The notes under the pieces: generated by a model | What the model was told of the DNA's origin: nothing | The model's input: only the letters and a program-made list of their open reading frames with translations | The model's database searches: none | DNA from: Owenia fusiformis | Taxonomy: Eukaryota; Annelida; Polychaeta; Sabellida; Oweniidae | Length of the DNA: 64,000 bases | NCBI GenBank assembly: GCA_903813345.2 | Contig: CAIIXF020000006.1 | Location: 18,669,936 to 18,733,935, forward strand | Direction: 5' to 3' | Made by a program: the position numbers and the translations under genes | In this document: one piece after another, positions 1 to 64,000 of the stretch | How positions within the stretch are numbered: the first letter of the stretch is position 1 | How the letters are laid out: every line of letters begins with the position of its first letter

Positions 1-244
1 TCTAATTTAATTACATAGGAAACACGAAAAAATACATTTTAACGACCATTTTTTAAAATAGGTCGAATTTTTTAGAAGGGTAAACTTCCCGGGAATTTTA
101 AACCTGCACATCGCCCCAAAACGCAATATGTTGACATATGTTGTTTTTACATTTTCAAGCTCTATAATATAAAGTTTATGTAATTAAAAATTGTTTTTTT
201 CTGCGTAATATCAAAGAACAATCGTTTAGTTAAAAAAATAAAAA

Positions 245-10024: not shown

Positions 10025-16484
<6,460 letters not shown>

Positions 16485-19423: not shown

Positions 19424-20413
19424 ATGCTAGAAATAACTACGGAGAATGGCGCAACCTTCCGAGCATTATGCAAAGACAATTGGCTCAAACTAGCTCATAG
19501 ATTCAATGGTGATGTCGACTTCGATAAAACTTGGAGTGAATATAAGAGCGGATTCGGGATACCAAATCGAGAACATTTTCTCGGATTCGATAATGCACTA
19601 TCTGTGCTTAACCAGGGAAGCTACAGATTGAGGATTGAATTGACAACATGGACGGACGACACAAGATATGCAGAATATGGAACGTTTATCTTGTCCGATG
19701 AAGATGATTTCTACATTTGTATCAGCATCTAGAAGCAAGTTATTTGTTCTTTTCATTCATGTCTATCTAAACTTTCTCGAGTCATGTAACATTCTTGGCG
19801 TGACTAGATACAGAGGAGTCCCTGGGGTTTGATCCGCACGGGTGTGGATTGTCCCTTTCAAATCAACCCCATAGCAAATGATTTGGTTATGGTTTCATTA
19901 TTATCATATCTCCATATCAGAAATATGGGTATAATGTAGATTATGACCAGCTACATTCAGTTTTTCTAAAAGATTTAAATTTACAATTAACAAATAAAGT
20001 AAGCAAGAATGAACGAATTGTAATTGCAATTGTAAACATAATGGAATAAGTTCCACAACGTATTCAAAATAGGGTCTGACCATCAGTTTTACCTAGACCA
20101 TAATGATAATATTTTAGGAGAATACGAAGGAACAGCGAGTGATTCTTTAGAATACCAGAACAACCAGAGTTTCAGTACGAAAGACCAGGACCATGACGGT
20201 ACTAACTCCGCCTTCGATTGTGCTAAGCATCACAAAGGGCCATTCTGGTACAATGGATGTGCTGATAGTGCTCTGTTTGGAGTCTACAAAGATGGAGGGC
20301 AATGCGAGTCATACGCGACATGTGTTTTGTGGAGACTATGGCCCGAGGTGATTGGTAGCCCAACTAATAATTGGTACTCATTCAGTTGTACGAATGATGA
20401 TCCAACCGACTGA
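19424..20413 (+). pseudogene. Fibrinogen-related domain (FReD), two exons, probably broken
   Basis: The first frame (19424-19732) matches the start of a fibrinogen C-terminal domain: TTENG, HRFNGDVDF, W..YKSGFG, EHFLGFD, YRLRIELTTW and YAEYGTF. The second (20118-20413, after ATATTTTAG) continues it with GEYEGTASDSLEYQNNQSFS, TKDQDHDG, PFWYNGCADS and a stop after NDDPTD. Such domains bind carbohydrate or protein ligands in secreted lectin-like immune proteins. Problems: the usual CD-x-GGGWTV start is replaced by divergent sequence, no signal or coiled-coil exon was found upstream, and the only GT donor at the end of frame one (ATTT|GTATCA) would create TGA on joining to the GEYEG acceptor; frame one also ends CISI-stop. 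Either a pseudogene, or it splices to the later acceptor before CGAGTGATT, losing GEYEGTA. Confidence 0.6.
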
Positions 20414-25749: not shown

Positions 25750-28700
25750 TTACAAAGGGGGCAATATTCTAGGATAACTGCCTCGAGAATCCAAAGGAAC
25801 TGATTTTCTACCTCCAGTCTCAAAAAAATTTATCCTAGAGTCTTGCATCTGAACAACAGGGAGTGATGTTGTCGGTAGTGCCTGTATGCCCAAATTAGGC
25901 GCTGATTGAGTTAAGTGAAGATCATTCCTTATGAAGTTGTAGTTTGGTTTCACCTTCTTTGAGATTGCTCTGACTAGATCTCTGGCATGTTTTAAACTGT
26001 AGGCTGTAATAAACAAGTGATAGAAATCAAATGAAGTTATTTTCTGCTTAGCATTTTCATTCTTTGTTCAAAACATCAGATTTGAGCTAAATAATTACAT
26101 TTAGATTATACTTCCTTAGATTGCACAATTTGGCGGTATTTCTTTGACTGGTTTCTTTTTTGTATCATAAACTGTTACGCACATATACAAGGGTGTAACT
26201 TATATACCTAGAAAAAAATTTCTAAAATATCTTAAGCTCAGTGATTTTACAAAGGAAAGTATGAGCAACTGCAAATAACTTTTGTCTGTTTCATTTCTCT
26301 GTTATAATGCATGTACGAATACATGTACATACCTTTAAGTCTGGCTCTGATCTCTTCACTAAAGTAGCCGCAGTTGATCCACTCATCATAGTCAAGAATA
26401 CAGTCAAAGGCTGTTAGGCCTGAAAGTGAAGAACAACAAAGTAAGAATGTTTGTGTACATTAGGCCAATATAAAATAATTCTATGTTTACCTGCACATAC
26501 TAAAAGTCATCCTAAAACTTTTAATTCATAGTTTGCACTTTTAATCTTAGATACAACAGAATTCATACCTTGAGAATTTTTGGTTCTTACATTGGCCCCT
26601 CTCTCTACCAGGACACTAGCAGCAAACTGATTGTTAGTCTGTGTGGCAAAGAACAGTGGAGTTGAAAGGTCATCATTGTAGCCATCTATATCTGCCCCAT
26701 AGTCTAAAAGGAGATCTAGTACATCAGTATTGCCTGACATACTGGCAGCATAGTGGAGGCCACTGGAATGTAGGAAATAAATCTTTTAGACCTTTTAGAG
26801 AAGGCATTATGTATAAGATATTAGTCTGACCATTTCTAAGAAAAAACAAGGAACATTAGGTTAATACCTTTTAGTACACATAAAGGAAGAATGAAAAATC
26901 TGTTTTTAAAATACATGCTAATAATTGTTTGCTTTATCAAGCTAATTTTCTTCATTATATTTCACTTTTGAGACATACCTGTTACCATTTGGGTACCTAG
27001 GATTGGGATTAGCATCATGCTCTAACAGAAACTTGGCAGCCCCCATCCTATTATCACTGAAATAGTATAGACTCAAAGTTATAAACTACATCCTGTATGG
27101 GTGGTTCTTCAACAGGATATGTTAACGAGACATACTTCTGGAATGATCCTTTCCCGATGATAATCCAACTCACTTTTTCTGTTCAAACCAGATTTTCTTA
27201 CGATCTGCATAATTTTAGGACTACAGCCAGACATGAGGCAGAATTTGAAAGAAAAATATTCAGTTAATCAGTTTTTCAAATTAAATATATTTAAAGAAAT
27301 GTAATGGTACATGTAGCACTATATAACTTCATTTGTATTGCTTTTGTGATGAATATAGCACTATTACATCCCCTAGGGGTCTACATATAAACTTTTGAGA
27401 TGTCATGCAATAGGTTAGACAGTTTTATATGGTTATAAAAATCTCTGAGTGTCTCTGATGAATGTCTGGACATGATTAAATAGAGTGCAGTTGTCAATGA
27501 ATGAAGAATCTTTGTTTCCATGGATAATATGATTGAGAAGATTATGTCTATTGGTTACGGCTATGTTCCCTAATTCCCTGAAAAGAGTTGTTCTTCGGGC
27601 AACATAGAGGGGGCGGTCAAGAAAATAATGAAGTGGTATCTCTTGTGCGAAACCACAAGCACAAGTACTTACGGTTTGATTTGCTCGGAAAGTATTCTCT
27701 GCATCAATGTGTCTTGTTCTCCATCCTTGAATAAGAATCCTGTACTGACCAACCTATAACATTAGAAATATTCAAATCTAATCTTTGGCTTGAGCAGGTA
27801 GTTTTTTTCTTATTAATTCACCATTCTTGGGATGGCATAGTGGTCTGGCAAATGTACCCAAACCCTTTGAAATGGGTTGGACAAATGTTTTTCACATGGG
27901 TCAAAATGTTGTAGTTTAAGCACATTGCTCATATTATAAGAATCTTTAGACAATTTGTCCACACACTTTGAAACACTATTTCTTCACAAATTATTTATTT
28001 AGCTTATAATCACTCATCATTAAAAAAGTGCTACATGTATTATGACATCTGAAAAAAAATTAATTTGAGGTACTAAGGCAATACACAGAACTAACATGTG
28101 AACCTTCAAAATAATGACACAAGGCATGGTATTCTGTGAATTGAAAGACTATACATCATATAGTTATGAGACCAATCTTTAAATTAATTCCAAAGATAAT
28201 GTAAAGATTCTAATTTTGAAGCAACTAACCAGTCAGCAGCCTCAAGGTAACCATTAGCAACAGCAAGGTGGACTAGACTGGGAGGAGATTTGGCATCCTC
28301 TGAGTTGAGACACTCCATCATCTGGTCACACTTGTGAGACTTCATCATGGACTTGATCAAATCAATACGCCCCTGCATGGCTGCACAGTGTATGGGCATT
28401 AAACTCTGTAATAGAAATGTATGGGCAATGGGCATTAAACCCTGTAATAGGAATGTGTGTAATGGGCATTTAACTATGTAAAAATGCATTGTATGGGCAT
28501 TAAACTCTGTAATAGGAATGTATGGGCAATGGGCATTCAACTATGTAAAAATGCATTGTATGGGCATTATGTAATGGGCATTCAACTATGTAAAAATGCA
28601 TTGTATGGGCATTAAACACTGTAATGTGTGTAATTGGCATTCAAATATGTAAGAAATATATGAGCTTTAAATTCTGTAAGAAATGTACACAGGTTCACAT

Positions 28701-31700
28701 TGATCTTACTACTGCATTAGTTCAGAGATTGGCAAGTAAGGCTAACTACCAAAAATATGAGAGACAACTTGTATGTACTGCACAAGTATGGCTTGCCAAT
28801 CCAGTACATGTAAATACTATGACACAATCACAATAATAAAGGAGAGTTCATACTATACTCACCCTGTTGTTTCTCAAAATAAGGCTGGCCCCACATGCTA
28901 TGAGTAACTCTACAGCTTGTACCTCTGATGGTTCTCCTGTCTCACCATAACATTTCACATGTAAGGCAGTGTTACCTTCCGTGTCATCAGCATTAGTCAA
29001 TGCACCAGCATCTAGCAATATCTGTAAATGTTGAATAAGACTAATATTTATGAGATATGTTTACACGTATGATGTAGTGTAGTGCCTTACCTTCCATAGC
29101 AACACAACAGTATCTAGCTATTGTAACTACAGTTATACCTATGCATATTGAACATTTTTTGCCAAGAAAGTCAGTAGAGTACAGTATGTGCAGGGGAAGG
29201 ATGTCTTCTAGAGACAGGTGTTCACTAAAGAAGGGTGTTCACTAAGACAGGTATCATGTAGTTAGTTCGTTTAAAACCATTGTAGTTCAAAAAAAGTAAT
29301 CTGCAATATTTTTAGGACAAGTGCCCATTCAAATGTTAATTTAATACATTGTATATTAAAAGAAGTAAAAAGAATATAATATTTCACGAAATTAAGAAAA
29401 ATAAGAAAGATTCATGATAAAATTAATAGAATCATATGAAAACATTGATATCTTGATATAAATTCTTACCCTCATGATATCAACATTGCGGGCCCTGTGA
29501 AGGGGAGTTGCCCCTTTGTAATCTGAGAGATTGACATCCAACCTCAGTTGTAACAGATCTTTTACTGCAGGTACCTGGCCAAAATAGGCTGCTGTATGTA
29601 GTAATGTACTGCCATTTATCATCCTATAATAAGAACATTGTTAAAGTTGTTCACACAAAGGAAAACCAAATTTTTCCTTTTACAAGTATGATTTACTCAA
29701 GAAAACAATATAAAAAAGACATTGACATGACAAAATGCCACCTCCTGGTTTCAATATAAAAAGTGTTTTTTATTATGGACATTGAATGACATATCTCAAT
29801 TTTTGATGTTGACTGGACAACAACAAAAATGGCACCATTTGGTGGACTCTCATGCATGGATATAAGTATTGTTTCAGATGAATGGCACCATTTGGTGGAC
29901 TCCCATGCATGGATATAAGCATTGTTTCAGATGAATGGCACCATTTGGTGGACTCTCATGCATGGATATAAGCATTGTTTCAGATGAATGGTAGTTTTCA
30001 TTTGTCTGAAAATTGTTGAGAGGAGAAGATAGACAGAAGCATAGATGAATGGGTGAGCAGATAGATGAAAGGATGAGTGTGCGATTCCATAGGCTGCCCA
30101 TGTCAGCCAAAAACTGGTACAATAAAAGGTCAAATCAAAAGGGCTAGAAAATAGTTCATGTAGAACCAAAAAAAAACATTAATAAATCATCTTAGGCAAT
30201 GAGTTTATATTATTACAGACATAAAATTCAGCATATCACACTTATTCTAATATCCCTTTGTACAGTTACATACCTGCTTCTTAGATTACGAAGTTCATAA
30301 ATTCCATTGCTATGGTTACGTATAGTTTTCTCCATAGCATTCTGGTTGCCCTTCATTATGTTGGGAACCACACCAGAGTAATAGTCATATGTATCTAGAA
30401 CAAAAAATAATTTTGTGAACCTGGAGGTAGTAAACACATATTCTGATATGCATTACCCAAGACAGGCTATGTCTTGCAAATGCAAGATGCTCTGATACAA
30501 TAATCTAGAATAACAGATCAAGAATGTATTTCCCAATACAGTTTCAAATTACTGATGTTCCATTATGAAAATTGTTCATATGATAAATTGACTATTTAAA
30601 TGTCTTACCAGCTAAGAAGCGTTTGACTTCATCATTCTTTGTGGAATCTAAGACAGTCTCCTGTTTCATGTTCATGCAGTGCATGTCACACCCCCACTCT
30701 ATAAGTAACTGGAAGTAAAATAAATAATTCTGAGTGCATTCCATGTAATATATGTACTAATACAGTAAAACCTGTCTAGTCTGAATGCCACTGGGACCAA
30801 CCAAGTGTTCAAATTATCAGGTGTTCACATTTCAAGCTTTTTAGATATGTGAGTTACTGGGTGATAACAAATTTGGGAGCAAGAAAAAGTGCTCACAATG
30901 TGTTCAGAGGTACAGGTTTCACTGTATTTGGTTATCTTGAGAGGATATAAGCCAAATCTGGGAAAAGATGCATTTACATTTTAATTGGGACATTTTGCCT
31001 TCTAAATATGGAATTGCTCATACTTATATTGGACACTTACATGACATATATTCCTATGGATGCCTTCCACTGCTAGAAAAAGTGGTGTCAGCTTGTGTCG
31101 ATTCTTCAGATCAATGTTGGCAAAGTTCTCTAGTAAATACTGCACTATTTTCTGAATAACAATAATACATCAGATAGATTACTATTAAGAATAAAACATT
31201 GAATTTTTTTTAAACTAATTAATTAATTTTTGTATTTGGTGTTGGGGGTATCTTGCCGATTTTGTTTTGTCCATTGTGTATCCATGCAGTGTGCCGCTGC
31301 CATCTGTCCCAAAGTTTTCACACATTGGTAAACTGTGACCTGACACAGCCTCGTGTAACAGCTCCATGAATCAGGATTGACTTCAAGTACAGTACACTCA
31401 CCTCATAACCTAATCTACATGCCCAATGCAGAGCTGAATTCCCAGTCTTGGGTTCTCTCGCATTGATAAAGGATGGATGTGACTTGAAGAATACCACCAT
31501 TTTTTCCACAATATCAAATTCGTTAGACTTTGCAGCCATTATGAACTGATGCTGCCAGTTGATGGTGTTGCCAGGAAACACTTGGTAGAGAAAGTAGGAT
31601 CCATGTTTCAGTTGTTTGTTCCTGGATGGGGCTTCAAAGAATATCTGCAATATAAAAAGTGAATTAATTTAAATATGTTTCCAATATTGTTGAATCTAAA

Positions 31701-45100: not shown

Positions 45101-48100
45101 TCTCATTCATGCAATTCCTGGTTAAAGAGAAATTCACTCTTTTGTGTCTCGGAAAATGATGTGTGGGCGAATGAATCCCTAAATCGAATTTCATGAAAAC
45201 TTAATTACTTGAGTAATCCTATACATTGTGTCTTATAAGTATATTATTAGTGTTGACTTTGGGGTTGAAATCAAAAGTTACTGTTAAATTCAAACTTAAA
45301 CTTTACTTGAGTCATCCTATACGTCATGTCTTATATGTATTCTATTATATATGTACATTATATTACATGAAATCTTAAAGAACCTAACCACTTTTCACTC
45401 CTCACAAAGAATATTTTTTCTTCTGCCGAAACTCAAAATTGCCATCTCCTCAATATCTAATGAACCATCCCTTATTCAATCATTTAGTGGGATACAGTCT
45501 TTCAGATTATATTTCTATTTATTGGGAAAGCTTTTCAAAATAGATACAAAGACCTATAGGTTTGATTAGTCCATTTCAAAATGCTGATAGAGCATAGAAA
45601 TACACACTAAAAGTTGATTATAGGTACTTTGCCATCTTCCAAAATATTGTTCTCTCTGTACTCTCAATAAATAAACTGCCAATAGTGTTCATGTAGGAGT
45701 AGGTACCTGACAGTTCATTAGTAGTATATTTATTTCCTTTTCAGCATGGGGAGATAAATTATATATTACAGAACATACTATATTAAGCTGAACTATGACA
45801 TGTATGATGTACTTATTGTACATTATATGTTTTTTTGTATATTACTATATTTTCTTCATAATTTTGCACACATGTTACCTGTTTACTATGGTATATCATG
45901 CAAATTAGGTGCTTTCTTTTTTTAATATCTATCCTATTAAGAAGGCATGGCCTGTGGATTAGGCTGTTTTGGCTCGGTACACTCATTGTCCCATTTCCTA
46001 CATGACACCGCATATCTTTTCCATTCAGGTTTCCAATCTGGTCCACAAGGTTGACCATCATTGAAATCATAAGGTACAACCCCAGCAAGTTGCTTTGCCT
46101 CATGTGTCTGGGCCACTCCTGGTAGCTCACTGATGGTGTTATTATTTGTTGTATGTTCACCAGGTGGGTAGACCTCAATACCCTCAGAAGGCCAGTGTCC
46201 AGTGTTATTTATTTTCTCATATGCATCACGTTTTGTTGCCAAATCATTCTCGTCAATCCAGATTGCTGGTGCCATGGCAACAATTAGTATGTAACGCCAT
46301 CTGCCAGGATTTTTACGATCTTTTTTCGGAAGAGCATTAGCATGGATCAGTCTGGAGTCCCATAAGAGAAGACCTCCTTTAGGAACTGCAATACGCTTTT
46401 CAACAGCCCCTTTATTTTTGTACCAGGCAATGTCACTAGGCCTATCTGCTAGGTCACAGTGAGTCTGTTTTATACTTGGTTCTATGTGCTCTGGATGTGC
46501 TTCATAGAATTCAGAGTGGTAAAAGTGGGAGCCTTCTAATGCATGGAAACACCAATCATCTTCATCAGCTGTTTCTAGGTACACTGCACCCTGGTAACAA
46601 TGTAGACCAATCCTCTCTGCTGATTGGTCACAATGTAACCAATGAGAACCCTCTGTGTAGAACTCAGTGCTGCCATCTTCTGGTGGACTTCCTATGGCAG
46701 GGATGTCAAAACTAGTCAGAAGTTTATCTGTTTCCCAGATTTTTGCAAAGGAATCCTTAATTTTGAGGCGTATCTCCCAACTAGCTTCCATATGGCCAGA
46801 TCTGGAGATGAAATATCATGGTGTTATATATTGAAAGGCTGTGAAAAGGAGTTTAATGACCTAGGCCCAGATATAAGATATAAAATGTCACCATTTATTT
46901 AGTGCATTGTATACATATAACTAACCTGTACTCAGTTATCAAGCTTTTGTAGTTATGTGGAAATCCTCCATTCACTTGTTCAACATGTTTGAGCCATTGA
47001 TTGTACTTGGCAACATATCTGTCACAGTCTTCATGGTCCAATGCATTCTCTATTATCACCCACCCCTTGTCTGCCAGCTGATGTTTGATATCATCCATCG
47101 ATTGCTCAACTAAAATTGAAATTTGGTTTTATGAATGCCATGAGCAAATATGGTTTCATCAAATAAATAGAGTGAGACAAGTTTTCCTAAATCCATTTCA
47201 TATCTCTGTTCATCAGCAAATATTGCATTATATGTCTATTGTCATATTTGTTATCTATTACTATATTTACTCAGATCATTATTGTAAAATTGCTAATATA
47301 AATGCATCTCAGTCTGCAACCTTGTTAATTTTCTGTGTCATGCATAGATTATCAAAGCAACATGACATATATCATACACTATCTATCCTATACACAAGTC
47401 AGCAGAGTAAACCACAAATGTTCAAATCAATACCACATCAATAAAAAATGCAGCACAGTTCAGGTACATAATATAACTTACTTTTGATGCTCAGCTCTGT
47501 TTCTAAGTTATAAATGTTACTTTGATAACAGTTGCTCTATAGCAGTTGCCTGTTCTCACGAGCCCTGAATAGATAACCATGTAACAGCATAAATGTTTGC
47601 TAGTGTCAAGTTTGACATGACTTATCTATTGTTCACACAATGTTATAAAAATGTAGATTAAGGTTAAGGAGTTTAAAGGGCAGCTAATAACACACTTGTT
47701 TTTGCCGTATTATTTTACAAATTTTGTGTTAAACCCAGTGTACAATGACAGTGCACAATGGGTTCTCCATAGACTTAAAGTTAGAATTAGACATATGGAA
47801 AACAAAAGGTGAAGCATCTTTAAATGTTTCACCAACCATCTTTAGATAATTTTGTATAAAAAATATTTAAAAGTACAGATGAAAACTTTTTCCAAAATGT
47901 ATATTGACCTGAGGCATATCATTGTTTGTAAATTCTCTAATGTTTCTATCCAACAGCTGTTCACAGTCACCAGCCAGGTACCCCAAGGGTCCTTCAGGCA
48001 GGGAAGCGCGAGAACCACCCCACCCACGTACCTGACTACCTACCTCCATTTCCTGACCCACACACCTATGTCAGAACAGAGGTAAGTTGTGATTTGTCAA

Positions 48101-55931: not shown

Positions 55932-58900
55932 ATGCCGTTGACGAGTTCATTCAAGGTAAGGACACAGATTAGGGTCCTTTGAGTATCATAATTTGGTATA
56001 TTTTGTTATAAAGCATTGATAATAGAAAAATAACAGAGATACATCGCTTTTGTACTAGTAATTGTATTTTATATTGTTAACCAAACGTTTCACGTATATA
56101 CTAAATGAAATAAAGTAGAATGTGTCTTATTCGAAAGCCAATGGGACCGGTCAAAATTGTTTGAAATACCACGTGTTCACATTCCAAGGTTCCTCAATAT
56201 GTGAATCAATGGGAGATAAAAATGGGAAAACGGATGAGTGTTCACATTGAGAGGTGTTCGGATATACATGTTTTATTGCATATTTTACTTACATTTACCT
56301 GTCATATCATATGAATTTTTGGAAAAAATCATCCAGTAAACATGCGATGGGAAGTTTATTTACTGGTCGGGATTAAAAGTGCGTTTCATTCCTATAGTCT
56401 ATTTGGCACAATATGATACTTCCCTCTGGCCTTCGAAACCAACGGGAAATATCAATTTGTCCCTCGGAATAGAACCCATATTCAATCCCTCCCAGTAAAT
56501 AATCTATTTAAGAATGTTGCAATTGTTATTTAGGTAAATTACTCAATTTACCTAATAAGATATTCATTTGAATTTTTAAATAAGCTACTCTCCTCAAGCC
56601 AGAGCAAATCGAACCATATGATAGTGATGGATCGGACATACATTGTAGATGCTGACAGGGGAAACGTATATAGTACAATCTGATCAATATATTATCATGA
56701 GTTACAAGAAGTCATGGTCTATGCTTAGTTGTTCGGAGAAATCATTGAATAAGATCTGGGCTTAGCGTCACTGAACACATTATTAGGGAGGTTAATTATA
56801 CGAGTAAGTTGGCACTGTTTTGTGGAACGTATGTACTATACGTGAAACGTACATATAATTGTGGTCCTACGTGGACTGTTTTCACCTCGCTGGCCTTTAT
56901 TAGCCCGGGCAACATAGAGAAATCTTGGCCCTCAGGCCGACTTTGGCACTGGGCAAAGATTTCACGATGTTGACCTTTGGAATGAGGTTAATGCTATGTT
57001 CCATGACTATGTCCTGGCACGGGATAAAAACCGACAACAAAGATTAACATCTATTAGAATCGAGAATTATTATCTTTAGTGAATAATAACTTGTAATATT
57101 TTGAAAAAGTAAAATGTGCTTTTCACATCATTATCGAAAGATCCTAGACTCTTTGATATTTTATCTGAAAAAACTACGGTAACCAGAGAAAGAAGAACCC
57201 GAGACAATCTACTACCTAGCTCGAGTAACTAAAAACCTTTAATTATCTAAATAGTTCAATAGTACTGGTTGTCTCGCATAGACCCTCTTCTACCATCTCA
57301 TTTTTCTCTACCACCGTGATATAGTTCATGGGGGAGTGCAGGGAATTAGTGCAAGACTAAGCTATTGTAATTTGATATTATAGAAATGTCATGCCGACTA
57401 ACAGCTCTCAGCAAAATTATTAATCATCTTGAAAACTAGAATATGATGAAAGTTGATCTAAATTAATAACTAAGCCCTCTTGGGAATCGACGATGTGATG
57501 TTCAAAAACAAAATGTGATACAGTATATTGTTCCTTTACATCAATATAAATTCACGTTCGTTCAAGTTCAATGTTTATCACAATAAACCCAAAGCAACGG
57601 GAAATTACCCAAAGCGACGACAGAAAAAATAGTCGCAATTTTTCACCCTAAATAAGTAACTTTGGGAATATCCTATTCACAAATTATTCTTTACAGCCTT
57701 GCAATGAGTCCTTTTTACTAATTTACCTCAAATTCCACCAGGCTACATTTCTATGCGTATCAAATGTAAAAGATGGCAAAAAATTCGCCAAGAGAATTTC
57801 AGAATTTCTATTCGTCTTCTATACGTGTTCTCATGTCCAGCATTTTCCAGAGTCTATGATTGTGTTTGTACATGTGCCAAAGGGTCAGTACCAAAAAATG
57901 ATTACAAAACGCAGCAAGAGAAAAAAACAGCCATAATGAATACAAACCCCAAATATCCCAAATAATAATCCAACGTGAAAAGAAACAGTGACCTGAATTG
58001 TGTTCAAGAATAACATGAATTGAATTGAAAAAAGAAAATCAAATGTCATCTTGAACACGCCTCCCCTCTCAGACTCGTATGGGAATAACAATAATTGATA
58101 AGAAAAATAACGTTTTATATTTGGTCAAGTTGACTTGATTTCTTAGGTGCGTCCTATTGATCAATACGCTCAGCTTGACCTTATTTGGCCTTAAAGTTGT
58201 TGTAATCTGCCTTCTTATTCTGGTCTTATCCGATAAAAACCGAAGCCAAGTTTCAACAGCGAAGCTGTGCCTAAGTGCCCGTGTGAAACTTTGGTAACCT
58301 CCGTGAATGACATGAATATATTATTTGAATGTCATTCATATGTCATATCTATTTATTATCATAACTTTAAAAATCGCAATATGAGCACGTTTGATCAGGA
58401 GGTGAAAGTCTACATTTTCAAGACTTGTTTGGTAAGTACATGTTGTGAGTAAAATTGTGTCACATTTTGCTAACATTTGATCGTTCACTTTCCAGAAGGT
58501 TGATGCAACGCCAGCTTCGTTTTATGATGGGACGAGTTTAGAGGATTTCATCAAAGACTGGGCATTCAGAGTCAGTAAGAAGAAGAGCAATAGCTTTGAC
58601 GTAACCATCGACTACAGTAGTTTGGGTGTCAATGTGGACATCACTGAAGTAGTAAAAGGTGAACCAAGAACTGTTAACACGACCAATCCCGTATTATTCC
58701 AAACAAGTTACCAGAATATCTCGAATGATACAAGATTGGATGAATTTGTGAATGATTATGAGGTGAACTCAAAATATTGTGTGAAGCTTGATAGCACTGT
58801 TCAATCAACATTAGGCCCCTTGAACGAAATATCATTTCCAAATGGTTTCTGCGGCCTCAATATCGTACATAAATTCAGCCTTGGTGATCCCGCTGATCAA

Positions 58901-61900
58901 GATTTCGAGGAAAACAAAAAATATGTAATCAACAAACAAATCCACACCTTCCCTTACCATCGCACCGATGTCACAGTGACATCTGTTGAGCATGAAATAG
59001 ACACAGATTTCAAGGTTGATATCAACCTTGAAGGTAAAATCAGTGTTAAACTCACAAAGAAAGATGGCAGCACGTCACCTCTTGAAATAAATGAAGAAAT
59101 TTCAAGCATACTTGCTGACTTTGAAGAAGTCTCCAAAACCCCAAAAGGAGTACATTTAGAGATTAAAGGCACGTTTAAGTGTATCCATAGAGGTCAGGTG
59201 AAACTTCAACAGCAACAAACAGGTAAAAGAATTTTTAATGTACAGTAGACCATATCTAGGCTGAAGAAAATAAGAGTGCATTCCTTCATATCGCCTATTT
59301 TAGGCCGATAAAAAATGTCGAAAATGTTTGATCGAACTTTTAAATGTAAGAAGTAATTCTAAAACGTCATTTGCAATGATAATTAGATTTTGATATATTG
59401 TTTTTCATTTAGTATTACAAGAGGAATGCAGTGGTAGAATACGAGAAGTAGAGGAACGGTTTGGGAATGATGGAAAAGTAAGATATTGCATGACTTTATA
59501 GTTGAGCTAGTTTTGTCAATGTGTAATGTTTTTATCCAAACGTCTAGTTCATAATTCATTATTTTTGTTCAAATATTATAAGATATGTTAACCTGTATGT
59601 TTGTAAGTTCACGTGAATGTAGTTACCGAAAGATTGCTTTCGTCGATCATTTGGTTTACCATCCACTCTCATTCATTTTCAGTCTTTACAAAAAGATGGC
59701 AGAATATTATACTTCGAGGGGGAGTTTGATAAAGCAACTCATGGAAAAGTCAAAAGATGGCAGCATAAACATGTATTTCTATTCGACGATATTCTTGTTT
59801 ATGGAGTTCCAGCCCATTCCGGAAACTCGGTAAGTGGCACGGAGCAAGGATCAACAACTTAAGCACTGAAAAATTCTCTAAGGAGAGTGGGATTCAAAAA
59901 ACCCAAATAAGTTAAACCTTTATTTCTATTTAGATCTACTCGTATAATATTGAACCGTTAAAATAGCAAAACCCAATCATACATAGATAAAACATCGCCG
60001 ATGAAAAGACAAACAAATAGATCCACGTTTACTTTTTAATGAAGACAAAATTGGGGCTGAAATCATGGCCCTATTGAATAGAAAGCCCATGATGAAAAAT
60101 ATGTAGGTTTTAACCTGGGAACTTCTTTTCTTCACAATTTGTATGCTTCAATTCTCATTTGGGATCATTACAAATACATATTTGAGCACTTATTTGTGTT
60201 TGTTTTTTCAAAAACTATTGAATCGGAGAAGGGAGCGGAGGTGACATTAGACATATGTTTAACTTGGAATGGCCTTATATCTTTGTGTCTGATAAAATTC
60301 TCAGTGCAAAATAGGTTTCATAACTTTAACTGATCAATCAATATAATTATATGATATTATTTTTCTCCGTTTATTAACAATGTGTTTTGTATATGTTATG
60401 ATTTTAGACACTTTTCTTTTAGATTACAAAGCAAGTCATTTTATCATTAGTGGGAGCTACTGTCTCGGAAACAAAGAAAGAGAAAGGTATGCCATTTGCA
60501 AAACATAAATACATTTTTAATAGCGTGTACATTCCAAAGGAGGTTAAGCTACCTCTCTTAAAAGAACTTGTGCGTGAATTATGGTCCATTAAGTTCTCTC
60601 TTCGTAGTATTTGACTTGGTGTGCTACATCAAGGAGGATTGGCCCTCAGAATCGAAGTCGATATTTTCCAACAATGAAAACGCCGAAATGTCGTTATTTT
60701 CTGAAATCATGACCGATTGTAAATTCAAGAGTTAAAAATATTTGAGCCAATATCTCATCATTTCATCAGGCATATTGCTCTCAGGTATGATGTCTGCTAA
60801 ATAATGAAAACGGGATGAAACATTCAAGATAATTTAGTGATCAATTTCCTTTTAAATGATTTAAAGCACCCGGGCTTTTTCAAATATAATTCTAATATAA
60901 CTGAAAACATGTTAAATTTGATCAAGGTATTGTGTCTGTGCTGACCTTACTCAACCCTTCAAAAGTTCCCTTAAAAATAATTTTTTTAGTGATACTGTGT
61001 AAAATCTTCTGCCATTTGTGAAAAGAATTGAAGACCAGAACTCAAGGCAATGTGTTTTGATTCATTCATCTAATGCGTTATTTTCTAGACTTTGCAATCA
61101 AGGTCTGGAAAATACACCTTCGAATGAATCACCCCACAATGCAATGAGGATGAGGATACCGCGTGACCAAATCAATACCAACAATGAATTTGGGAGACCC
61201 CCTGACATTGGAAATAAATCAATGATGACATAAATATCATAATGCTATAACCCTTCCTTTTTTAGATGGAACAAGAAATTTTGTGATTAAAACAGAAACA
61301 AATGAATTGGAGTTGAAAGCGAAGACTCCTGAAGTAAAAGAAGCCTGGATGCAGCGCATACGAAACACACGTGTGAACAAACAGGTATCGACATTATTCT
61401 GACTAGGGTTCTTGATGGATTTGCCTAAAATATGGATCTCATATAACATGATGTTCGATGCACTAGATCTAGTGGCTTGAATCGTAAATGCTAAAAAGCC
61501 TGGTTAAACTGAAAAATGAATGATGATAATGTAAATGAATGATAACCATTTTTTCTCTTCATCTCCTTCCCTATTTTTATGTGTAAATATTGCTCAGACA
61601 TGAGTCTAACTGACATTTTCTCATATATAATTCTTTCCTTTTGTATATTTCATAAAATAAAGGACATGTAAAGGATCCATACAATGTAACTATATGTGTA
61701 TATATACCATTATTGGCACTCTATAGACTTCTTAAAAGATCCTGGTCCTTTTACACTTAGAATATATACGTGGTCTCTTGCATGTTCAAATCTACTGCTG
61801 TTCGACTTAACCAGAATATGTATCCATAACTTTGAAGTTCCTCCAATGTAACAGATTATATGGCCAAAATCTCATAATGACCGGTCAACTTTCCTAAAAT

Positions 61901-62849
61901 CGAAGAAGTGCATTGGATATTTTAGAAATTATCAGAAAGTTACGAACATGGGGAATTCAAACAACAATTGAAACCAAAGCTCGTATTTTATACAGATGCA
62001 TGAGCTGGCGTGCCAAGTTGAAGAGGTGAAAGACGTTGTGAAACAGAATGTGGTTAAGCTCGAGGACAGGGGAGCTTCAGTGGAAAACTTGACAGAGAAG
62101 GGCGAGAACTTGAATAAACAGGTACCTGCCCTATATATTTCTTTACTGGTTCAGACTTACTGTTGATCGGATGGTTATTTCAAAAACGTAGAAAGGGAAA
62201 GAGCTCCATGTAAGCGTATATATAAGGGTTTAAGAGTAGATGCTAGTCTAAATCTAGCTGAAAAGGTTATCTCTCGTTATTCTTAACCATGATTATGCCG
62301 TTGATTTTGCTACCTTTCCAATAGTTTTTTGTGATTATGCTTTACCTAAAGATCCTCAGCTAAAGTGGGTTCCATCATCGGTTGTAATATAGCCAGGTGG
62401 CGCAAATGTGATCTCATGAAATTCATCATAACGCCTAATTAACAGATAATAATCTCATAGCCATGTAAAACATAATGAAAATATTAATTTTTTTATTAAC
62501 CATTCTTTTTCAGTCGGAAAGCTTCCACAAAACAACAAAGAATTTAAAGGAGGAGATAAGGCTACCCTGGTATAAAAAACTTTGGAGGTGGTGTCTCCCG
62601 AACTGTTGTTGTTGCTTTCAAGTATGTTACAAATCTAAACTTTGTAACCCTTGTTGCGCACGCATGTGTTCATGTTGCATTGATGACGACACACGGAAAG
62701 AACAATATGAACAATCCATGCAAAATGAAATGAAACCCTTGAAAAAAGGTCAACGAATAAAGAGGGGGATCGGAAAAGGTGTGGATGATATTAAAGAAGA
62801 AGACATTGAACTGGCATTTAAGCAACACGCAGAGTCTGATAAAGTATGA
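55932..62849 (+). CDS. Beta domain-PH-R-SNARE-Cys-rich fusion protein, 8 exons
   Basis: Exons: 55932-55955, 58496-59222, 59413-59477, 59683-59829, 60423-60486, 61266-61384, 61996-62121, 62514-62849; frame is continuous, 535 residues. Residues 9-250: one long exon, Asn/Thr/Ser-rich alternating beta pattern without signal peptide; its layout resembles the aerolysin/ETX-MTX2 pore-forming fold (as in worm LIN-24), moderate confidence only. About 272-378: PH domain (RILYFEGEFDK, FLFDDILVYG, closing EAWMQRIRNTR). 384-435: R-SNARE motif aligned layer by layer with synaptobrevin; R407 is the zero-layer arginine, F428 and L435 are layers +6 and +8. 451-479: twelve cysteines instead of a transmembrane helix, suggesting palmitoyl anchoring. 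The tail is basic then acidic. PH plus R-SNARE without a membrane span recalls amisyn. A polyA signal at 63160 supports the stop; a GTATGA donor-like site overlaps it. Confidence 0.8.
56105..56281. repeat. AAACCTG/TGTTCACATT family, copy 4
   Basis: It carries CCAATGGGACCGGTCAAA, CGTGTTCACATTCCAAGG and GTGTTCACATTGAGAGGTGT, the same word set as 30771-30926. The terminal repeats are decayed. It is in intron 1 of the SNARE-like gene. Confidence 0.45.
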
Positions 62850-64000
62850 TCTATTACATACTACAATAGTTGACATAAATAATCAAATACAAGTATAAAC
62901 AATTTAATCATAAAATCCTCCCATTGTTTATGAATATTTTTAAACGGGATAATCAGCAGATCATTTTGGAGGATATGTCTTGTATCTTTTAAGAATTCTC
63001 AAATGTAATTTTACTCAACCTTTTCAATACACGGATTGAGCAATGAAATATTGATAGCGAATATGACTGCTAGATGGATTACATGATTGTTTTGTATGCT
63101 TCTCAAAATATGGTCTTGGTGAATCCTTAACCCTTGAGCTGCTTTGCAATATATTCTCAAATAAAGAAATAAATGTGATGAATAAATAAATAAATACATA
63201 CGAAAATGACAATTAAACCAAAGCAATCGGCTCTTTAATTGTAACCCTACTGTCACCATCTTGCTTCATCAAGCCTCGGACCTATTCTCATGTGTGCATA
63301 TCGACATGGTGCGACCTGAACGAACTGCGATGGACGTATCGAAGACTGCTTATGAACGAAGTAGCTAATTATTTTAGACACATTTCCCGACCACAGCCAC
63401 AATTGCCCCATTTTACGACTTTTTATCGGACCTAAAATAGGTACGATCGATATTGTCGTCAGCTTGGCGGTCGGACGGCGTCTCTTTTCGGAAGTCATCT
63501 TGCATTCTGGTGGCCATTTCGGAAGTTCTTAGATAAATCTTGTCATCGCGATTACAGGAAAACCACTTGAACGATTTACTTCAAATTTTTACACATGTTA
63601 CATGATAAGACGTTCTAGAGCTGTGGAACTTATATGTGGCCATCTTAAAGTACGTCCTATCCGTTCGTACAAAGTTTAAGCCCGTTTTCGAGAATGTAGT
63701 GAGAACTAGTTTGGTGTGAGAGTAGAGTTAGAAAATGTTGATAAGCCTCTAAGTTCTGTAACACCTTCCCGGGCGTCAGAACATATCCATGAAATTCTTC
63801 AGAAGATCGTACGAAATTTAATCCACGCCAAGCTCGTTCTGGCTTGAGCAGTGTCGTCTGATGTACTTTTGATAATTACAGGGTGGGCCAAAAAGCAATG
63901 GGAATGAAAAAAACATGGGATTTTACATGAATTTATTCAGTCAAGTTTATTGAGTGCAGCTATGCAACCTCGCTACTGCAATATGGAGGGAAAGGATGGG
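62850..64000. other. 3' UTR and downstream intergenic sequence
   Basis: The SNARE-like gene's 3' UTR probably ends near the AATAAA at 63160-63165, followed by an (AATA)n stretch. From 63250 on the sequence is noncoding. CAGGGTGGGCCAAAAAGCAA near 63880-63899 resembles the terminus of a DNA transposon that continues out of the window. Confidence 0.4.
63160..63165 (+). terminator. PolyA signal of the SNARE-like gene
   Basis: AATAAA 311 bases after the stop at 62849, the first strong hexamer on this strand after the last exon. Confidence 0.5.

What the first reader, a model, noticed from the sequence alone, without database searches (positions are those of the whole stretch)
55932..62849. Fusion of a beta-rich possibly pore-forming domain, PH domain, R-SNARE and Cys-rich anchor
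Eight exons with fully consistent phases join four modules that I do not know together in any family. Seen: the PH pattern, a complete synaptobrevin-like heptad register with central Arg, and the cysteine cluster. Inferred: the N-terminal 240 residues share the layout of aerolysin/ETX-MTX2 beta pore-forming proteins. With no signal peptide the whole protein should act on the cytosolic face of membranes, so a membrane-active domain would be tethered by phosphoinositide binding and SNARE pairing.
Basis: partly seen in the sequence, partly recalled or inferred. Interest (0 to 1): 0.9.

Follow-up and report, generated by a model that had tools for sequence, protein, structure and literature searches.

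The report
R-SNARE with PH and orphan domain
A gene in an apparently animal genome encodes a vesicle-fusion (SNARE) type protein that also carries a lipid-binding-type module and a large unknown beta-rich domain in front, and a very old second copy elsewhere in the genome supports that this unusual combination is real.

Summary
The gene is very probably real and its four-module layout holds. Eight exons with GT-AG borders and compatible phases give 535 residues. Pfam confirms PH (283-376, 1.4e-9) and R-SNARE (380-440, 5.6e-12). The last 95 residues hold 12 Cys, and no transmembrane-like stretch was found.

New evidence: 6.2 Mb away on the same contig lies a second gene (B) with the same four modules, 24% identical over a colinear alignment. 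Its five modelled introns match window introns in phase, four in the same alignment column, and three exons have equal lengths. 'Two separate genes' is therefore very unlikely.

The front domain alternates strongly in both copies. The window copy matches nothing in Pfam, NCBIfam, PDB or the 5.8-billion-protein set, and its AlphaFold model failed. 'Aerolysin-like' stays a lead.

Best reading: a lipid-anchored, phosphoinositide-directed R-SNARE related to VAMP8/VAMP4, whose front domain is an orphan effector or tether. It is a new variant of a known kind. Other animals could not be searched.

The parts
55932..55955 (+). Exon 1 (8 aa, MPLTSSFK), candidate start codon
   Evidence: GT donor, phase 0; no other Met before residue 371
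58381..58431 (+). Alternative first coding exon (17 aa, MSTFDQEVKVYIFKTCL), GT donor, phase 0, 64-bp intron to exon 2
   Evidence: use not testable here
58496..59222 (+). Exon 2: orphan beta-rich domain, residues 9-250
   Evidence: open frame; beta-alternation 49 windows vs 13.8 in shuffles; homologous exon in paralogue B, z 8.1; no Pfam or NCBIfam match at E up to 10
59413..59477 (+). Exon 3: linker residues 251-272 leading into the PH domain
   Evidence: GT-AG, phases fit; homologous stretch fused to the next exon in B
59683..59829 (+). Exon 4: PH domain, first part (residues 273-321)
   Evidence: Pfam PH 283-376, E 1.4e-9; SOS1/NGEF-type PH also above its cut-off; nearest PDB sequences FGD5 (0.018) and FARP2 (0.028)
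60423..60486 (+). Exon 5: PH domain, middle (64 nt, same length in B)
61266..61384 (+). Exon 6: PH domain, end (119 nt, same length in B)
61996..62121 (+). Exon 7: first part of the R-SNARE motif with zero-layer Arg407 (126 nt, same length and phases in B)
   Evidence: Pfam Synaptobrevin 380-440, E 5.6e-12; VAMP4 3.7e-6 and VAMP8 5.8e-6 in PDB; layers
62514..62849 (+). Exon 8: end of the SNARE motif, LPWYKKLWRW juxtamembrane-like stretch, Cys-rich segment (12 Cys) and polar tail, stop
   Evidence: B has LPCWKRFCCCCC at the same place
63160..63194 (+). Cluster of four AATAAA poly(A)-like signals downstream of the stop
   Evidence: 63160, 63168, 63181, 63189

Best explanation
A single gene makes a peripheral membrane R-SNARE. 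SHOWN by sequence: one gene model with four modules; a complete R-SNARE register with Arg at layer zero, closest in the PDB to VAMP4/VAMP8; a PH domain; a Cys-rich segment where VAMPs have their transmembrane helix; and a second gene with the same plan. INFERRED: the Cys cluster is S-acylated and holds the protein on the cytosolic face of a membrane; the PH domain (with the basic tail) chooses a phosphoinositide-marked compartment, most likely endolysosomal or phagosomal since the SNARE and one of its introns match the VAMP8 type; the SNARE motif joins Qa/Qb/Qc partners there. The front beta-domain is thereby placed at the docked or fused membrane, where it acts as a membrane- or partner-binding effector or tether. 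My likelihoods: one gene with this architecture 0.95; lipid anchor instead of TM 0.8; SNARE-complex forming 0.8; beta-domain of aerolysin type 0.4; real pore formation 0.15.
For: Gene model and phases. Pfam PH and synaptobrevin above cut-off. VAMP4/VAMP8 best in PDB. SNARE layers in both copies. Paralogue B: blastp 46-447 on 76-475, E 7e-18, 23.7% identity; shuffle z 8.1 (beta), 14.3 (PH), 8.6 (SNARE), 33.9 (whole), with 0 of 1000 shuffles reaching any of these. The five introns modelled in B share the phase of window introns 2, 4, 5, 6 and 7; four fall in the same alignment column and one is one residue off; three exon lengths are equal. Cys cluster and LP-x-W-K-type stretch in both. No TM-like stretch. 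The VAMP8-like gene of the same genome shares the 3' intron of the SNARE exon in column and phase. When B is searched against the whole genome, the only place outside B is exon 2 of the window gene (E 9.5, not significant alone).
Against: No transcript was seen; first exon ambiguous; the small codon-bias test favoured the frame in only 3 of 8 exons. Two borders in B (exon 5 and the donor of the last PH exon) were chosen with the window gene in mind. B's PH scores only 17.9 bits against a cut-off of 25.1, so B may have lost lipid binding. No relative was found in any collection searched; as far as I can judge those collections hold few animal sequences, so this says little. Acylation, PH ligand, partners and compartment are all untested. 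The window protein searched against its own genome did not find B (7 matches, all from the window gene, 12 of 12 candidates scored), so the homology shows only when the two are aligned directly.
Confidence: 0.55

Rival explanations
1. Inhibitory (amisyn/tomosyn-like) SNARE: the R-SNARE motif occupies Q-SNAREs without driving fusion, and the PH and front domain place this brake at chosen membranes.
For: PH plus C-terminal R-SNARE without TM is the layout recalled for amisyn; [quoted passage not shown]
Against: Best SNARE matches are VAMP4/VAMP8 (only chains in the PDB were compared). The Pfam scan lists 9 families at E up to 1, among them PH families but not the Sec3-type PH recalled for amisyn. 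A Cys cluster in both copies suggests a firm anchor.
Confidence: 0.25
2. Intracellular pore-former: the front domain is a true aerolysin-fold domain which, delivered by the SNARE and PH modules, perforates phagosomal, endolysosomal or parasite membranes.
For: Strong beta alternation in both copies, in B also in the region between the early and late strands; a long alternating stretch shared by both (window 170-198, B 208-232) that from memory resembles the later strands of aerolysin-type proteins; aerolysin domains occur in many eukaryotic fusions (PMC3110756, section 5 and part 1 of section 7 read).
Against: No match of the window domain to Pfam at E up to 10, NCBIfam or PDB; B's domain gives only weak, unrelated Pfam matches (PCNA_C 0.025, RavZ_C 0.11, both below cut-off); fold model uninformative; no alternating stretch above threshold in window residues 115-169; apparently cytosolic, so oligomerisation would threaten the cell itself.
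Confidence: 0.15
3. Two neighbouring genes were joined by eye: a beta-domain protein (exons 1-2) and a PH-SNARE protein (exons 3-8).
For: Exon 2 has an in-frame stop eight codons after its donor; no transcript data.
Against: B has the same order with a homologous beta-to-PH junction in phase 1; no Met in exons 2-5 of the window gene, first internal Met at 371; no poly(A)-like signal from 59223 to 61212.
Confidence: 0.04

Closest known systems
VAMP8 (endobrevin) / VAMP4 R-SNAREs
   Same: R-SNARE register with layer-zero Arg; best PDB matches (3.7e-6 VAMP4, 5.8e-6 VAMP8); intron inside the SNARE motif at the same column and phase as in the VAMP8-like gene of this genome
   Different: No TM helix; Cys-rich segment and polar tail instead; PH and orphan beta domain in front; apparent 5' border of the SNARE exon differs
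Amisyn (STXBP6)
   Same: PH-type domain followed by a C-terminal R-SNARE, no TM (passages of PMC8066043, and recall)
   Different: PH closest to Dbl/FGD-type PH domains rather than Sec3 type; Cys cluster and beta domain present; amisyn is called vertebrate-specific in the title of a reference seen
Ykt6 and SNAP-25/23 (lipid-anchored SNAREs, recalled)
   Same: SNARE held by lipidated cysteines rather than a TM helix (recalled)
   Different: Ykt6 has a longin domain and a CAAX end, SNAP-25 two Q-SNARE motifs; neither has PH or a beta domain (recalled)
Aerolysin / ETX-MTX2 / natterin-like proteins
   Same: About 240 residues of alternating beta sequence; loose pattern resemblance from memory
   Different: No profile or structural match; insertion hairpin not evident in the window copy; none of the fusions described in the part of PMC3110756 section 7 that I read (part 1 of 2) has PH or SNARE

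Membership tests
R-SNARE (synaptobrevin, PF00957) | Family score above the curated cut-off | tested here: met
   45.8 vs 26.4 bits; B 42.5
R-SNARE (synaptobrevin, PF00957) | Arg at layer zero and 15 other core layers in heptad register | tested here: met
   MLVVVNL R VLGLSFTL; B VLVTMQL R VLALSFAL
R-SNARE, VAMP type | C-terminal transmembrane helix | tested here: not met
   best 19-residue hydropathy mean 0.77 and 0.84 in B; Cys cluster instead
PH domain (PF00169) | Family score above cut-off | tested here: met
   38.9 vs 25.1 bits; not met by B, 17.9
PH domain (PF00169) | Phosphoinositide binding | not testable with these tools
   needs lipid-binding assay
Aerolysin / ETX-MTX2 | Profile match | tested here: not met
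   exon 2: no Pfam family at E up to 10; B's domain: only weak unrelated matches below cut-off
Aerolysin / ETX-MTX2 | Five-strand core with alternating insertion hairpin between strands 2 and 3 | tested here: inconclusive
   fold model pLDDT 35.7; alternation absent from window residues 115-169 but present in the matching region of B
Aerolysin / ETX-MTX2 | Oligomeric membrane pore | not testable with these tools
   needs purified protein
Amisyn (STXBP6) | Sec3-type PH domain (recalled) | tested here: not met
   not among the 9 Pfam families with E up to 1
Amisyn (STXBP6) | Inhibits fusion by occupying syntaxin | not testable with these tools
   needs reconstitution

The most novel reading that the evidence does not exclude
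An R-SNARE that carries its own membrane-perforating (aerolysin-fold) domain on the cytosolic side, so that SNARE pairing and phosphoinositide sensing decide which organelle or internalised microbe's compartment is opened: a SNARE-aimed intracellular pore-former, kept as two ancient paralogues.
Probability: 0.12. Interest if true: 0.93.

Novelty: new variant of a known kind. Interest (0 to 1): 0.62.

Why it matters
SNARE proteins have few known domain plans (recalled). One that swaps the transmembrane anchor for a Cys cluster and adds a PH module and a large orphan beta domain, kept over a duplication old enough to leave 24% identity, points to a membrane-trafficking function that I saw described in none of the listings of my literature searches. 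If the front domain proves membrane-active, it would link SNARE targeting with organelle perforation.

Tried and rejected
Structure of the front domain: AlphaFold on exon 2 alone gave pLDDT 35.7. Foldseek on that model gave no match with E up to 0.001 and, in the 50 rows shown, query TM-scores of 0.08-0.15, among them fibronectin, arrestin-type and Vps26 chains; I give these no weight. Homologues: three protein searches, PDB (for the front domain; 9, 52, 53 for the rest), viral and genome contigs, NCBIfam and PHROGs: nothing for the front domain (PHROGs one match, 0.11 over 20 residues, taken as chance). Tandem copies: none within the window or in 110 kb on each side (best E 2.0). The codon-bias test was indecisive (in-frame best for 3 of 8 exons) and I do not use it. 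Rfam: nothing at gathering score. A comparison with aerolysin-type genes of the same genome (PF03318) was planned but did not complete. Passages of PMC8913654 and PMC8402412 were seen and not used.

Full report
WHAT WAS CHECKED. I rebuilt the gene from the DNA. The eight exons have GT-AG borders, compatible phases and no internal stop, and give 535 residues. The only methionine before residue 371 is the first one, so an upstream start exon is required. Two candidates exist: 55932-55955 (8 residues) and 58381-58431 (17 residues), both phase 0; I could not choose between them. A codon-bias test with a very small training set favoured the frame in only 3 of 8 exons and is not used.

MODULES. Pfam places a PH domain at 283-376 (38.9 bits, cut-off 25.1) and synaptobrevin at 380-440 (45.8 bits, cut-off 26.4); the SOS1/NGEF-type PH model is also above its cut-off. 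Against PDB sequences the SNARE part is closest to VAMP4 (3.7e-6) and VAMP8 (5.8e-6). The PH part is weakly closest to the PH domains of FGD5 and FARP2 (0.018 and 0.028). The sixteen layers read MLVVVNL-R-VLGLSFTL. The C-terminal 95 residues contain 12 Cys; the best 19-residue hydropathy mean in the whole protein is 0.77. No signal-peptide or acylation predictor was run. The front domain (exon 2) is rich in alternating polar/apolar stretches: 49 ten-residue windows above a beta-moment of 1.7 against 13.8 on average, 0 of 2000 shuffles. The PH-SNARE half shows no such excess (10 against 12.8).

THE SECOND GENE. A whole-genome look for synaptobrevin exons (12 matches at E up to 0.001, 38 of 38 candidates scored) returned one, at C6:12474669, whose exon has the same 42-residue length and phase 0 borders as window exon 7. 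Ten kilobases around it (L043) hold a relative, gene B, on the minus strand: beta exon 12476320-12477166, PH exons 12475815-12476017, 12475592-12475655 and 12475091-12475209, SNARE exon 12474669-12474794, tail 12472796-12473002, in one frame. The five introns between them have the phases of window introns 2, 4, 5, 6 and 7 (1, 0, 1, 0, 0). In the alignment four fall in the same column and the counterpart of window intron 4 is one residue off. Window intron 3 is absent from B. Three exons are equal in length (64, 119, 126 nt). Two of these borders are weaker evidence: exon 5 of B was picked among candidates by phase and a wide length range (it also had the best splice score, and 64 nt was not imposed), and the donor of the 119-nt exon was picked over a nearby out-of-phase GT. 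The first exon(s) of B are not known.

HOW CLOSE. blastp aligns 46-447 of the window protein with 76-475 of B at 23.7% identity, E 7e-18 for a two-sequence comparison. Shuffle z-scores are 8.1 (beta), 14.3 (PH), 8.6 (SNARE) and 33.9 (whole), none reached in 1000 shuffles. B's SNARE layers are VLVTMQL-R-VLALSFAL, its tail has LPCWKRFCCCCC, and its front domain also exceeds shuffles in alternation (51 against 18.3, 0 of 1000). B's PH falls below the Pfam cut-off (17.9 bits). Searching the whole genome with B gives six matches to B itself and, as the seventh and last up to E 10, exon 2 of the window gene at E 9.5 (13 of 13 candidates scored). The reverse search with the window protein returned only its own exons up to E 1 (7 matches, 12 of 12 scored). 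So these two are the only members seen, and more diverged ones could be missed. In these calls one residue of B (372) was typed wrongly.

ORIGIN OF THE SNARE PART. The VAMP8-like gene on C9 (L024/L025) ends its first SNARE exon at the same column and phase 0 as the window gene and B. In L027 and L029 the apparent break lies about six codons earlier, in phase 1. With the VAMP8/VAMP4 sequence matches this suggests a VAMP8-type origin. The name VAMP8-like for the genome locus rests on motif recall, not on a tree.

THE FRONT DOMAIN. The window copy has no match in Pfam or NCBIfam up to E 10, PDB (with the two-sequence profile), the 5.8-billion-protein set (210 candidates) or viral and prokaryote contigs. 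PHROGs gave one 20-residue match at 0.11. B's copy gives PCNA_C 0.025 and RavZ_C 0.11 in Pfam, both below cut-off. AlphaFold without relatives failed (pLDDT 35.7), and a fold search with that model is worthless. [quoted passage not shown] Window residues 115-169 contain no stretch above my threshold, while the matching region of B (about 147-202) contains three or four, so this is inconclusive. The same paper states in its abstract that the family's borders cannot be set by sequence, so the negative profile result does not exclude membership either.

HOW IT PROBABLY WORKS. Shown: four modules in one gene model, twice. Inferred: the Cys cluster is acylated and, with the PH domain, keeps the protein on the cytosolic face of a phosphoinositide-marked membrane; the R-SNARE pairs with Q-SNAREs, most likely in the endolysosomal route; the front domain is held at that site as effector or tether. 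Whether the SNARE drives or blocks fusion is open. Lipid-anchored SNAREs can do either (recalled), and amisyn, the nearest PH-plus-R-SNARE protein known to me, is described as a negative regulator (passages of PMC8066043).

NOVELTY. Of ten literature searches, three aimed at the combination found no paper and three listed 1, 1 and 2 papers whose listings do not describe it; some searches were for context. The library lacks most subscription papers, and unannotated predicted proteins in other animals could well carry this combination. I rate it a new variant of a known kind (R-SNARE), with an orphan domain.

LIMITS. No transcript, no named organism (that it is an animal is inferred from the gene content, not tested), no relatives from other species, no structure. 

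Noticed in passing
L043 (G000:C6:12472001-12482000, minus strand): Diverged paralogue B of the window gene, same four-module plan; used as main evidence.
   Followed up: yes
window 58381-58431: Alternative first coding exon, phase 0, separated from exon 2 by only 64 bp.
   Followed up: partly
window 19424-19729 and 20042-20410, + strand: Two open frames matching parts of a fibrinogen C-terminal domain (E 7e-18 and 4e-12).
   Followed up: no
window 45940-46815, - strand: 292-codon open frame; the piece 46000-46815 is weakly like phytanoyl-CoA dioxygenase (PhyH, E 0.0072, below cut-off).
   Followed up: no
window 28187-28540, - strand: Ankyrin-repeat open frame (E 2e-5); another open frame at 31321-31668 (-) looks similar by eye.
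   Followed up: no
window 12591-12914, + strand: 108-codon open frame that by eye resembles the start of a JmjC/JMJD6-type protein; no Pfam match at E up to 10.
   Followed up: no
G000:C9:18237926-18238463 (L024, L025): VAMP8-like gene sharing the SNARE-internal intron with the window gene and B.
   Followed up: partly
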